From Laccaria trichodermophora (taxonomy: Eukaryota; Basidiomycota; Agaricomycetes; Agaricales; Hydnangiaceae), in NCBI GenBank assembly GCA_018417955.1, contig JACTVC010000015.1, positions 893,862 through 957,861 on the forward strand: a stretch of 64,000 nucleotides of DNA. The letters run 5' to 3'. The notes beneath the pieces are model-generated. The model was not told the origin of the DNA. It made no database searches and worked only from the letters and a program-made list of their open reading frames with translations. Below, one piece after another: positions 7,510-11,530 of the stretch (positions within the stretch are counted from its first letter, which is position 1; every line of letters starts with the position of its first letter). A program made the translations under genes and the position numbers.

Positions 7510-8666
7510 ATGGCTAGTTGGCAAGTGCTCTTCGACGGCTCTGTCTACACTCGCGCTGCATACCATTCCGCTCGCTCTCTGTTCGACAAGGAGGCACTTG
7601 CGGATTGCGATGGTGAAGACATTGCCAATCTATTGGCTATTGTCCATCCGCTCATGGTAAGTCGTCTTTTATTTTTTCTTTTTCTGTTTAACTCAACGTT
7701 TGTTTTCTTAGTTGAGATACTGCCGTTCTCTTGACGATGGTGTGCAAGAAACTCAATGCGACCTTCGCGTGCGTAAATCTCTTTACAACGCGTGGGCCGT
7801 TTTGAGTACCAACCACGCCAACTCCGCTTGGGATGAGTGGATGCTCGAGGCGCCCGAAGGCGACGAGGATTATTATCTCCCAGTGAGTGTCTTTGTTTCT
7901 TCATCTGATTTTTATTTTATTTTATTTTATTTCTAGGTGGATTGTCTTACTGGGGACTTCGTCATGACTCCGTTGAGTAATGACGAACTCCTTCAAGTTC
8001 TCCCTGCGATCTGTGATGCGCCTGTCAGGGCAAACCCTTTCCCAGCTTCATCTACTCCTGTCGCTAGTCGTCATCCATCGCCCATTGACAAGGAGTCTGA
8101 CCGAGAGGACTCTCCCATCTTTGTAAGTTTTCTTATTCTAAATATTTCGTTCTTTTTCTGATTTATTCTTTACTTCTTTTTAGAAACGTCGTAAAGGCGT
8201 TCTCGCGTCGCCAGGCCTCATGAAGTTTACGCCTTCGCCGCCGGACAGTCCTCCCGCTGCCGGCCACTCTCATACTTCTGCCACTCCAGCAACTGGTTCC
8301 GCTGACGTGCCAATTCCCATTTCTTTATCTCCTATGCCGCCGCTTGGTATCTTGCCGCCTACCGCATCTTTTCCAGCACCGCCTGCCAACGCCTCTTCGA
8401 TCCTCGCAGTCCCTCGCCTCAACATTCCTAAGGTGGAGATGCACACGCATCGCGATCACCCTGCAAAAGCTATTGCCAAAATGAAGAACACTCTCGTGCT
8501 TGCTCCAAGCACGAAATCTAAGGCCAGCAAACGCAAACGGAGTCCCAGTGAGGAAGGAGAGGATGAGCAATCAGACAAGTCGTTCGTTGCTAGTCCTCCT
8601 CCTCGTAAACGTGGACGGCCCCGTAAAAGCGGTACGTCTTCATGTTTTCTTATAATTCACGCTTCA

Positions 8667-8698
<32 letters not shown>

Positions 8699-9609
8699 TT
8701 CGAACTTTTTCTTATAGCGCCAGAGGTCATTAACCCTGAGCTAACTCGTGATAAGCAAAGGTTCTGTAAGTTTTTTTCTTTTCCTCTTTCATTTCTAGTT
8801 GCTAACGAAAGTCTTTGTTTATTCAGTACCTCCTCATGAGCGTTTCATAGGGGCGTTCAACATCCCCACCGACTTGGAGCATCTTTTCAACAAACCATTC
8901 GTGAGTTACTTTATTGTATCTTCTTTTTATTCTACTCAAGTTCTCTTCTGTTCAGATCCCCGAGCCTTGCGTTCAATGCTCGATGGGCAAAAACCGAAAG
9001 GAGGAGAAATGCCAGTTTCAAGGCTGGGGTTACCCCTGCGTGCCTTGTACTACTGCGCATTTCACCTGCTGTGAATTCAGCTTGAAACCTGTTCGTCGTG
9101 TGGAAGTCCGCGGTATCTTGGGACGTCGCCCCGTTCGCTTGGCTCCGGAACGTAAGTTCTCGAGTTTTTATTTTAAAAGCTTTCTTCTGACTTCGCTTCT
9201 GTTTGTAGTCATTGTCTCTCATGTCCAAGACACTATATTCGATCAACAGCACATCCGCGCACAACACGCGATCCTTGACTCCCTCATTTATCGTCAGGAT
9301 ACCAACATGCGCCACGCTGCTCGAGCGCTCTTTGACCTCGCTGTTCTCGAAGGCCGTGAAAACTTGGTGGGGACCATTTTTCAGACCCAAGAGGACCTCG
9401 ACCACTATTTTCCTTTCTTCATGAACTACCTTGGCGATCTTGCCAATCCCTCCGATGGCGAGGCTGCCAAAGACTCCCTCAACAATCTGGCAGAGATGGC
9501 CGTTCTGTTCGAGAAGATCTGCCCCGGTCGTCCTCCTACCGATGATTCTGATGAGGACGACGAAGACGATCAAGACAATGAAGGCGAGGCCCCGGCCAAC
9601 GATGGGTGA
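7510..9609 (+). CDS. Antisense accessory protein 1 with AT-hook and cysteine cluster
   Basis: Eight exons (7510-7656, 7712-7882, 7937-8122, 8184-8631, 8718-8765, 8827-8900, 8956-9151, 9209-9609) join in phase to 556 residues. All introns are GT-AG. Residues about 190-270 are Pro/Ser-rich. An AT-hook KRGRPRK sits near 311. A cysteine cluster C-x2-C-x10-C-x8-C-x2-C-x6-C-C spans about 363-398 and resembles a Zn2Cys6 cluster with a long first loop. The last 20 residues are very acidic. The gene lies antisense to gag-pol between the integrase and the 3' LTR. Because it is antisense, its introns cannot be spliced from the genomic RNA and so survive retrotransposition. A DNA-binding nuclear role is inferred; I do not recognise the family. 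Confidence 0.75.
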
Positions 9610-9900
9610 GCGAGGCGCTTTCATATTTCTTATGCATCTTTTTGAGACTTTATACGATATTCTTTACGCAAAACCTCTTAATATCGTATTATCTTTGTAT
9701 TTCTTGTAGTTTTTATTAGGTAGACTAATAAAAGCTTGTATCTTGTTGTTTTTCTACTAGTGTGAAAGAAGACTGAAGTCGCCTCAGCTGACTTAGAGAC
9801 TTTTTCAACCAATTTCTAAGTTCGTTCTTTTAATTATAAAATCACAAAACATTTATCTCTTGATTTCACAAGGTACATTATATGTTATAATAGATCACTA

Positions 9901-9938
9901 TCCTCCCCCCTACTTTTAAAATCAACTGTCCTCAGTTG
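9901..9938. other. Internal second PPT-like tract with co-varying hairpin
   Basis: 9901-9911 reads as a purine tract AGGGGGGAGGA on the minus strand. It is followed at 9923-9938 by CAACTG-TCCT-CAGTTG, a 6-bp stem with the same TCCT loop as 7068-7083. The surrounding bases also align with 7045-7085. The module separates the two antisense genes. It could be a second plus-strand priming site or the scar of module duplication. Confidence 0.6.
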
Positions 9939-10170
9939 TTCCGCCAAGCGCGAAGAGTGCGTCTGAAGCGACGGCAATTCTATTAATAGCACATGTGATT
10001 ATCATACACGATACCTCCTGAAATGATGCTCAACTCCTGAATGAGCACGTTGTCAAATTCTTCATTCTCTAGTCAGGGGTGTAGAACAGTGGAACAGTGG
10101 AACAATTTAAAAGACGGGAAAAATCGTTGAGCATTGTAGCCCAATTCACGACGCTTTCACCCAGCCTAAC

Positions 10171-11530
10171 ATGTCACCTCCTGTACCTCTTGCTTCTACT
10201 CTCGTCATCCGCGACAATATCAATGAAGCGTTTAAGACTTATGTCAACTCGAAGCCGACGTTCCAGCCCCTTGTTCTGCTCAGCATGCTTTCTAGCATTG
10301 CTGGACTCTGCGTACGCTTTTTATGATATATACGTGAATGTCATTTTAATTCGTATGTCTTGCTTCTTGTTAGGGGACTCTTGTCACCAGTGGCGATCCT
10401 GCCATTTTCACTGATCACAACTTATCGGAGCCTGTCTTCATCGTTCGCCAAGAGTACAACGCTCTCAATGACTTGGACAAGTCCGTTACCGCTCCTGTAG
10501 GCTTCAACGTCTGCCGGGACTTCTGTAAGAAGGTCCAGATCATCCGAGATGCAGGAAACGCACAGAAGCGTGGTGCCGCTGACGTCGCTGCAGCCCTTGC
10601 TGATGTTAAACCCAAGGTCCGTTATTTTTATTTATTCTCGTTTTTCTATTTTTAATCGCTCTTTTGCTCAGCCTCACCCTCGTAAAGCCATGAAATCCAA
10701 GGCTGTTATCGACGACAAGGACGACGACGAGATCGAGATTATTGGCGATGTCAACGTCACAATGGGTGCATCTGATGGTCCCATTACTGCCACTTCAGGT
10801 CCTGACGCCGTGCGTATCTCTTAATTTTCATAGGTCTCATTAATTCATTTACTCGATCATTCGCGCAGATGAAAATCGACAACCTCTTCAACGGGGAAGT
10901 CGAAGCGAAGGTTGCTACCAAGGATAAGGGCAAAAAGCGTGCCGTAAGTAAGGTAAGCCACGCGACGCGTTCTTTTCGATTTTTAATACGCAAATGCTCA
11001 TAAATTCGTTGTTAGTTCCCATTCAAACGCGCAGAGACTGTGCGTATTCCGTACGCCGCTGTCCCTGGCATGGACACTAAAAATCGTATTTACTTCAAGG
11101 CGGCCGCTATCGAGAATGGTCAGGTTGCGTCGTCTAGCAACAAGCGGGCTCAGATTGATCCCTCTTCTGCCACTGACCTTGCTGACCTTCAGCGTCGTCG
11201 CGGCACGTCCTTTCTACTTTTCTTATAGCACTAACACGAAGCTAACGTCTTATTTTTATCTTTCTGTGCATAGGACACTCTTTGTCGCTTGATAGTTCCA
11301 TCAAGGACTTTATCACGCAGCGCACCAGAACTGTTCTCGACAAACCCATGCCTGGCGAACCCACGCTGGATTATTATCGTACTACGGAGCTGGACTTGCG
11401 CAACCACGTCATTACTGTCCTTCAGCGCATGGACTTAGAGCTCAAACTCTTTGAAGTCGTCAACGCTGAGTACGAGACTGTTGCCGACTTGCTCAAAGAT
11501 TATGAGGAAATCGAAGCGTTTCTTGCTTAA
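10171..11530 (+). CDS. Antisense accessory protein 2, acidic nuclear-type protein
   Basis: Proposed exons are 10171-10311, 10374-10616, 10672-10809, 10869-10952, 11016-11202 and 11274-11530, about 349 residues. The first four introns are GT-AG. The last keeps frame only with a GC donor at 11203, so that junction is the weakest. Residues about 142-152 contain an acidic run directly followed by IEIIGD, the pattern of a SUMO-interaction motif. Basic clusters PRKAMKSK and KGKKRAVSK could be nuclear-localisation signals. The C-terminal 80 residues are helical in appearance. It follows the internal purine-tract module and is transcribed in the same direction as the first antisense gene. The family is not recognised. 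Confidence 0.65.

What the first reader, a model, noticed from the sequence alone, without database searches (positions are those of the whole stretch)
7510..11530. Two intron-rich antisense genes inside an LTR retrotransposon
Seen: between the pol stop and the polypurine tract lie two genes on the strand opposite to gag-pol. Their eight and about six exons join in phase through short introns, and the first has its own TATA box. Known: genomic RNA splicing would remove sense introns during retrotransposition, so only antisense genes can keep them; antisense extra ORFs are described in some plant LTR elements. Inference: this is a retrotransposon that has taken up two host-like nuclear genes and carries them as cargo. 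They may regulate its own silencing or transcription.
Basis: partly seen in the sequence, partly recalled or inferred. Interest (0 to 1): 0.92.

Follow-up and report, generated by a model that had tools for sequence, protein, structure and literature searches.

The report
Intron-bearing antisense genes inside fungal retrotransposon
A mobile element in a Laccaria mushroom genome carries two conserved genes with introns, written backwards relative to its own genes, and one of them appears to have been exchanged as a block between copies of the element.

Summary
The window contains a Ty3/gypsy-type element (5376-20412, reverse orientation; 1,672-bp LTRs, 2 mismatches). Between pol and the 3' LTR lie two genes antisense to gag-pol: gene 1 (8 exons, 556 aa) and gene 2 (6 exons, 349 aa). 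All 10 loci found with full-length gene 2 at 93% identity or more also carry gene 1. Among close copies indels fall only in introns. dN/dS is 0.16 (gene 1, copy I) and 0.15 (gene 2, copy M), near pol's. A distant element keeps all 7 and 5 introns in the same phases (31% and 39% protein identity), though its gene 1 is interrupted in exon 1. No host parent gene was found. Gene 1 has an AT-hook and a zinc-cluster-like six-cysteine motif, so a nuclear regulator is likeliest (inferred). Gene 1 lies between two copies of a hairpin-plus-polypurine-tract module, and differs as a block in copies I, J and F (A-I dS 0.90, against 0.07-0.11 in pol and gene 2). Two distant families carry other antisense cysteine-motif genes at that site; one related copy has none. 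Expression and function are untested. Precedents: plant antisense ORFs, Botrytis Boty.

The parts
5376..7047 (-). 3' LTR of the element (element sense runs on the - strand)
   Evidence: 1670/1672 identical to 18741-20412, TGATAC...GTATCA ends; 4-bp flank repeat CTGT
7048..7057 (-). polypurine tract 1 (PPT1) next to the 3' LTR
7068..7083 (-). 6-bp hairpin TGACCG-AGGA-CGGTCA just upstream (element sense) of PPT1
   Evidence: pairing kept by two-sided changes across families
7419..7424 (+). TATA box before antisense gene 1
   Evidence: similar sequences in copies I and M
7510..9609 (+). antisense gene 1, 8 exons, 556 aa, AT-hook (from residue 309) and six-cysteine motif C-x2-C-x10-C-x8-C-x2-C-x6/7-C (from residue 363)
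9901..9911 (-). second polypurine tract (PPT2), between the two antisense genes
9923..9938 (-). hairpin CAACTG-AGGA-CAGTTG next to PPT2, same loop as at PPT1
10171..11530 (+). antisense gene 2, 6 exons, 349 aa, no Pfam match
11707..15606 (-). pol ORF: reverse transcriptase, RNase H, integrase
   Evidence: RT_RNaseH, Integrase_H2C2
15582..16874 (-). protease ORF
   Evidence: gag-asp_proteas 1e-5, below the curated cut-off
16847..18622 (-). gag ORF with a zinc-knuckle motif
   Evidence: zf-CCHC 0.0045, below the curated cut-off
18741..20412 (-). 5' LTR of the element

Best explanation
Shown by sequence: a fungal Ty3/gypsy-type element carries two protein-coding genes with spliceosomal-type introns on the strand opposite to gag-pol, between pol and the 3' LTR, and they are long-term, selected parts of the element. 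Established logic, not tested here: because they are antisense, splicing of the genomic RNA does not remove their introns. Inferred: both are transcribed from their own promoters as cellular mRNAs from the integrated copy, and gene 1, with an AT-hook and a zinc-cluster-like six-cysteine motif, acts in the nucleus as a DNA-binding regulator of the element (LTR activity, chromatin state or silencing), with gene 2 as a partner of unknown biochemistry. Inferred from the layout: gene 1 is held in a cassette site bounded by two copies of a hairpin-plus-polypurine-tract module, and the gene has been exchanged or lost there as a block between elements, probably by template switching or recombination between related elements during reverse transcription.
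For: Copies: 10 of 10 loci with a full-length gene 2 of at least 93% identity carry gene 1 on the same strand and in the same order (7 full or nearly full, 3 partial). Indels: 0 pairwise events in exons against 40 (gene 1, 6 copies) and 75 (gene 2, 9 copies) in introns. Selection: gene 1 A-I w 0.161 (CI 0.115-0.207), gene 2 A-M w 0.146 (0.095-0.207), pol 0.090-0.146 against C, I and M. Depth: in distant element N intron phases are identical at 7/7 and 5/5 places. Motifs: AT-hook found in all 7 sequences run (KRGHPRK in P0005), cysteine motif in all 7 run, Q and R included. Block difference: A-I identity is 62-87% in 7476-9725 (85% at 7326-7475) and 89-99% in the other windows compared; dS 0.897 in gene 1 against 0.107 and 0.074 in gene 2 and pol. 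Module: hairpin plus PPT at both tracts in A, N and Q, pairs kept by change on both sides. Cassette site: other antisense cysteine-motif genes in families Q and R, none in a copy related to R.
Against: No transcript or protein evidence was available. Neither protein matches Pfam at E<=1 nor, as profiles of homologues, any PDB chain at E<=10, and both AlphaFold models, made on L. bicolor homologues, are useless (mean pLDDT 37 and 38), so 'DNA-binding' rests on motifs alone. Among close copies of gene 1 the selection signal is weak (A-C w 0.417, CI 0.213-0.858; type-a pairs 0.03-0.78). Several copies are broken: B has a stop in each gene, I a frameshift in gene 1, F a frameshift and a lost first donor in gene 2, G, K, F and J lack parts of gene 1, M has stops in gene 1 and a frameshift in gene 2, and N's gene 1 is interrupted by an insertion in exon 1. 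For N against A, dS is saturated, so no reliable w. I and J are identical where compared, so the block difference is seen in at most two independent lineages. The cassette gene is absent from one distant copy (L038). No exchange intermediate was seen.
Confidence: 0.6

Rival explanations
1. Passive cargo: the element picked up two host nuclear genes and carries them without use.
For: Introns and own TATA-like sequences look like host genes; a gene-less copy exists in a distant family.
Against: Purifying selection between copies and families; same position and intron plan in a distant element; no host parent found in the genome.
Confidence: 0.12
2. Silencing decoy or antisense control: what matters is antisense transcription (or dsRNA) over the 3' part of the element, not the proteins.
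For: TATA-like sequences upstream of both genes; this role is discussed for plant elements (PMC7264820, passages read).
Against: Amino-acid level selection, constant exon lengths and intron indels point to a protein product. Both can hold together.
Confidence: 0.13
3. Gene 1 is a defence or counter-silencing protein aimed at rival elements or host silencing, which would explain why it is the diverged, exchanged cassette.
For: Block difference and high divergence of gene 1 between otherwise close elements.
Against: An overall dN/dS of 0.16 gives no sign of an arms race (single sites were not tested); no known domain.
Confidence: 0.13

Closest known systems
Boty-like elements of Botrytis cinerea with antisense gene brtn (Zhao et al. 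2011)
   Same: Fungal LTR element with an extra antisense gene between pol and 3' LTR (as stated in PMC7264820, passages read; original paper not seen)
   Different: Ascomycete host, one gene named; whether brtn has introns was not seen. Here two genes with 7 and 5 introns, two polypurine tracts, conserved between distant families.
Plant Retand / Grande / RIRE2 antisense additional ORFs
   Same: Antisense ORFs between pol and 3' LTR, some predicted to bind DNA or found in the nucleus; Grande gene23 has its own promoter (PMC11963269 and PMC7264820, passages read)
   Different: Described as ORFs, in Retand mostly with the TRP28 domain; the word intron does not occur in either paper's main text. 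Sequence relation was not tested.
Sireviruses, Athila4, Calypso (plant elements with extra polypurine tracts)
   Same: Extra PPTs between pol and 3' LTR; in Sireviruses an inverted repeat at the terminal PPT (PMC2829016, passages read)
   Different: Sirevirus upstream PPTs lack the inverted repeat (same passages); here both PPTs of the window element have their own hairpin with the same loop, and they bracket an antisense gene.
HTLV-1 HBZ
   Same: Antisense gene of an LTR retroelement encoding a nuclear protein (PMC11963269 passage; that HBZ is spliced is recalled)
   Different: A retrovirus of vertebrates; protein relation not tested.

Membership tests
Ty3/gypsy LTR retrotransposon (Metaviridae) | Two LTRs with TG..CA ends and short target duplication | tested here: met
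   1,672-bp LTRs; matching 4-bp flanks in 6 of 7 copies examined, not in copy B
Ty3/gypsy LTR retrotransposon (Metaviridae) | pol order RT-RNase H-integrase | tested here: met
   RNase H domain at 555-658, H2C2 integrase domain at 875-931; the polymerase domain itself (RVT_1) gave no Pfam hit at E<=1 and no phylogeny was made, so the clade is open
LTR element with antisense additional ORF between pol and 3' LTR | Conserved antisense gene in most copies, in that place | tested here: met
   10 of 10 loci with full-length gene 2
Fungal Zn2Cys6 (PF00172) transcription factor | C-x2-C-x6-C-x5-12-C-x2-C-x6-8-C (spacing recalled) and Pfam match | tested here: not met
   first loop is x10 in gene 1 (x11 in Q, x9 in R), no Pfam hit; works-like remains possible, membership not claimed
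Boty brtn family | Sequence similarity of the antisense protein to brtn | not tested
   the brtn sequence was not fetched; one search found 5 proteins among 7,990 scored, all five from L. bicolor

The most novel reading that the evidence does not exclude
Laccaria Ty3/gypsy elements possess a cassette site bounded by two hairpin-plus-polypurine-tract modules that holds intron-bearing antisense regulator genes and lets elements swap, gain or lose them as blocks, so that LTR elements exchange their own nuclear regulators the way phages exchange modules.
Probability: 0.35. Interest if true: 0.87.

Novelty: new variant of a known kind. Interest (0 to 1): 0.75.

Why it matters
It indicates that an element replicating through RNA can keep multi-exon genes over long evolutionary times by placing them antisense, and that such genes are under selection as parts of the element. 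It makes a long-open question testable: what the antisense extra genes of LTR elements do. The block-wise gene 1 and the conserved hairpin/PPT module give direct handles. Gene annotations of mushroom genomes may hold further such element genes as 'predicted proteins', as they do in L. bicolor.

Tried and rejected
Host-parent search: the matches to gene 1 and gene 2 found in the genome were in element copies; two outliers were looked at. C67:1255850 is a decayed relic of the distant type. C12:936408 is a fragment with exon 1 plus the element's own non-coding stretch upstream of gene 1, so an element fragment. Wider relatives: the gene 1 searches found only L. bicolor proteins; gene 2 also hit five proteins on short metagenome contigs of unknown host. 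Structures: both models too poor to search with. Palindrome as a binding site of gene 1: considered (CCG-N4-CGG at PPT1), but the half-sites change in pairs while the loop stays nearly constant, which fits an RNA hairpin in the genomic RNA better. Homology of the two intergenic regions as a whole: not above shuffles (score 31, shuffle mean 27, max 42), so only the short module is claimed as shared. DUF7051 hit of P0005 (E 0.25) and STPRs hit of Q (E 0.25) treated as chance. Hairpin counts against: 54 of 500 shuffles reach the number of pairs with change on both sides and 500 of 500 the number of further pair types, while 1 of 500 reaches the score, the paired cells and the cells with two-sided change. 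In family R the second tract has no hairpin, and M's first hairpin is imperfect.

One search shows that N's gene 1 starts before an insertion in exon 1; the 546-aa frame begins at an ATG behind it. Confidence lowered from 0.62 to 0.60 for this.

Limits of counts: close-copy indel counts used 6 of 9 aligned rows for gene 1 (dropped G and K, truncated; I, diverged) and 9 of 11 for gene 2 (dropped F, M); F, J and M were not in the gene 1 alignment. Genome matches are lower bounds by the tool's own note. For PMC11963269, PMC7264820, PMC8365987, PMC3248453, PMC3411680, PMC4227169 and PMC2829016 I saw passages only; for all other papers search listings only; Zhao et al. 2011 not seen. My searches for prior work were made; none of the listed titles and abstract openings reports a basidiomycete element with intron-bearing antisense genes, and the library is open-licence only.
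Full report
What the element is. The window element spans 5376-20412 and reads on the minus strand. Its LTRs (5376-7047, 18741-20412) differ at 2 of 1,672 sites. Of seven copies examined with both LTRs, six have matching 4-bp flanks and one (B) does not; LTR-LTR differences are 0-20 per copy. gag, protease and RT-RNase H-integrase lie in three overlapping frames. The genome held (G000, 59 Mb, 77 contigs) is most likely from a Laccaria: the named homologues of the two antisense genes are all L. 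bicolor S238N-H82 proteins. P0005 and P0011 of that strain match their best places in G000 at only 62-94% exon by exon, so it is probably another strain or species.

The two genes. Gene 1 (8 exons, 556 aa) and gene 2 (6 exons, 349 aa) are on the plus strand, opposite to gag-pol, and their exons join in phase. A DNA search found gene 2 at full length and at least 93% identity at 10 loci (the window included), and each of these carries gene 1 on the same strand in the same order: full or nearly full in 7, partial in 3. Gene 1 is intact in 5 of 9 aligned rows (A, C, D, E, H; the partial F and J and the distant M were not aligned), gene 2 in 8 of 11 (A, C, D, E, G, H, I, J).

Are they real coding genes? 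Among six close copies gene 1 exons show no indel and introns 40 pairwise indel events; among nine copies of gene 2 it is 0 against 75. Against the diverged gene 1 of copy I, dS is 0.897 and dN 0.144 (w 0.161, bootstrap CI 0.115-0.207). For gene 2 against copy M, w is 0.146 (0.095-0.207). For pol, w is 0.090, 0.146 and 0.113 against C, I and M. Close copies give weaker values (gene 1 A-C 0.417, CI 0.213-0.858; gene 2 A-I 0.261, CI 0.143-0.478).

Depth. A distant element, N (C1:4.233-4.247 Mb; pol 72% identical in DNA), has both genes in the same order. Gene 2 is open for 363 aa. Gene 1 is open for 546 aa from an ATG near the end of exon 1, but its likely true start lies about 4.6 kb away, behind an insertion in exon 1. 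All 7 and 5 introns occur with the same phases. Identity to the window proteins is 148/471 and 134/343 aligned residues. dS against the window is saturated for gene 1 and pol and 2.2 for gene 2, so w is not reliable there. A family M (C19) also has both genes in place beside diverged LTR and pol pieces, but broken. In L. bicolor S238N-H82 homologues of the two genes carry consecutive locus tags in two cases (335457/335458 and 318468/318469), which suggests the same pairing there.

What the proteins look like. Neither matches Pfam at E<=1 or, as homologue profiles, the PDB at E<=10. An AT-hook (RKRGRPRK in the window) was found in all 7 sequences run: window, P0001-P0005 and N, with H for R in P0005. 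The motif C-x2-C-x10-C-x8-C-x2-C-x6/7-C was found in window, P0001, P0002, P0005 and N; P0003 and P0004, whose annotated models lack part of it, were not run. It resembles the fungal Zn2Cys6 cluster (consensus recalled) but with a longer first loop, so I do not file it there. Structure prediction, on the L. bicolor homologues P0002 and P0008, failed. A nuclear DNA-binding regulator is inference from these motifs.

Origin. Searches of the host genome with gene DNA and with P0005, P0008 and P0011 place the matches in element copies, apart from a decayed relic on C67 and an element fragment on C12. There is therefore no sign of a host parent, and the genes are older than the split between the N and window elements.

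The gene 1 block. Copies I, J and F carry gene 1 that is about 74-79% identical to the window's (I and F 91% to each other over 1,257 bases; I and J identical over 1,002 bases of gene 1 and over pol, so not independent), while their pol is 95-97% identical to the window's. Along A against I, 150-base windows are 92-97% identical up to 7325, 85% at 7326-7475, 62-87% from 7476 to 9725 and 89-99% from 9726 to about 13000. dS is 0.897 in gene 1, 0.107 in gene 2, 0.074 in pol. An 8- to 12-fold difference at synonymous sites is best explained by replacement of the block, not by faster evolution; which lineage received the new block is not known.

A duplicated hairpin and polypurine-tract module. [quoted passage not shown] The module is perfect at both tracts in N and Q; in M the first hairpin is imperfect; in R the first is perfect (loop CGGA) and the second tract has none. 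Over 11 rows, 96.8% of cells pair and three of six pairs change on both sides; 1 of 500 shuffles reaches the score and the paired cells, 54 of 500 the number of such pairs, 500 of 500 the number of further pair types. A scan for such a hairpin before a purine tract finds 1-2 per family region against a shuffled mean of 0-0.04 (maximum 1), and none in the other 48,963 bases of the window. In the genome the 14-base core matches 25 places, 24 of them in these elements by position (C36 is the exception), against 6 for the reversed control. Extra PPTs are known from Sireviruses, Athila4 and Calypso (PMC2829016, passages).

A cassette site in other families. Family Q (C14:671-676 kb, pol piece 66% identical in DNA) has two identical 36-base copies of the module 1,555 bp apart; the second lies at the pol stop, and between them is one antisense gene of 3 exons (337 aa) with a six-cysteine motif C-x2-C-x11-C-x18-C-x2-C-x6-C. 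Family R (C12) has an antisense gene with a similar motif, broken by a stop, at the same place. A related copy (C21) has no gene there, although its flanks are 88-92% identical to the C12 copy, 78% around the first tract. Whether the Q and R genes share an ancestor with gene 1 is not shown: the window, N and L. bicolor proteins found no match in Q or R at the thresholds used.

Known work. Antisense additional ORFs between pol and the 3' LTR are known from plant elements and from Botrytis Boty (PMC7264820, PMC11963269, PMC8365987; passages read; the Boty paper itself not seen). The survey of L. bicolor elements (PMC3411680) does not use the words antisense or ORF in its main text. My searches listed no report of multi-intron antisense genes in a basidiomycete element; the library is open-licence only.

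Verdict. The 'captured host genes' reading is not supported in its recent form. It is a new variant of a known kind: resident, selected, multi-intron antisense genes, one of them in a site whose content differs as a block between elements. Expression, function and the exchange mechanism remain to be tested.

Noticed in passing
window 15560-16900: gag, protease and RT-integrase ORFs each shift by -1 (frames 2, 1, 0), with G GGT TTC in the gag/protease overlap and G GAT TTT in the protease/RT overlap, reminiscent of the two -1 frameshifts of MMTV (slippery-site comparison recalled).
   Followed up: partly
window 11203-11273: The last intron of gene 2 has a GC donor in the window copy; the other 10 aligned rows have GT. 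In element N the second gene 2 intron has a GC donor.
   Followed up: yes
G000 C8:468687-482689: Copy B carries a nested insertion of roughly 13.5 kb between gene 2 and gene 1, and one stop in each antisense gene.
   Followed up: no
L036 (C1:4245400-4247200) and L030: Gene 1 of distant element N is interrupted in exon 1 by an insertion of about 4.6 kb whose two ends look like inverted repeats of each other, as in a DNA transposon; the middle was not fetched.
   Followed up: partly
L038 (C21:608800-613800) against L039 (C12:1071200-1075200): Presence/absence of an antisense gene stretch of about 1.3 kb between otherwise 88-92% identical copies of a distant family.
   Followed up: partly
window 2612-3076 and 4994-5428: Two minus-strand ORFs with similar sequence (PLVLKSL... 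and PRVLKSL...); the second runs up to the element's LTR, so the element may have inserted into a tandemly duplicated gene.
   Followed up: no
P0012-P0016 (metagenome proteins): Short metagenome contigs encode gene 2 relatives (43-67% over 20-29% of the protein), hinting at the gene outside the two Laccaria genomes; host unknown.
   Followed up: no
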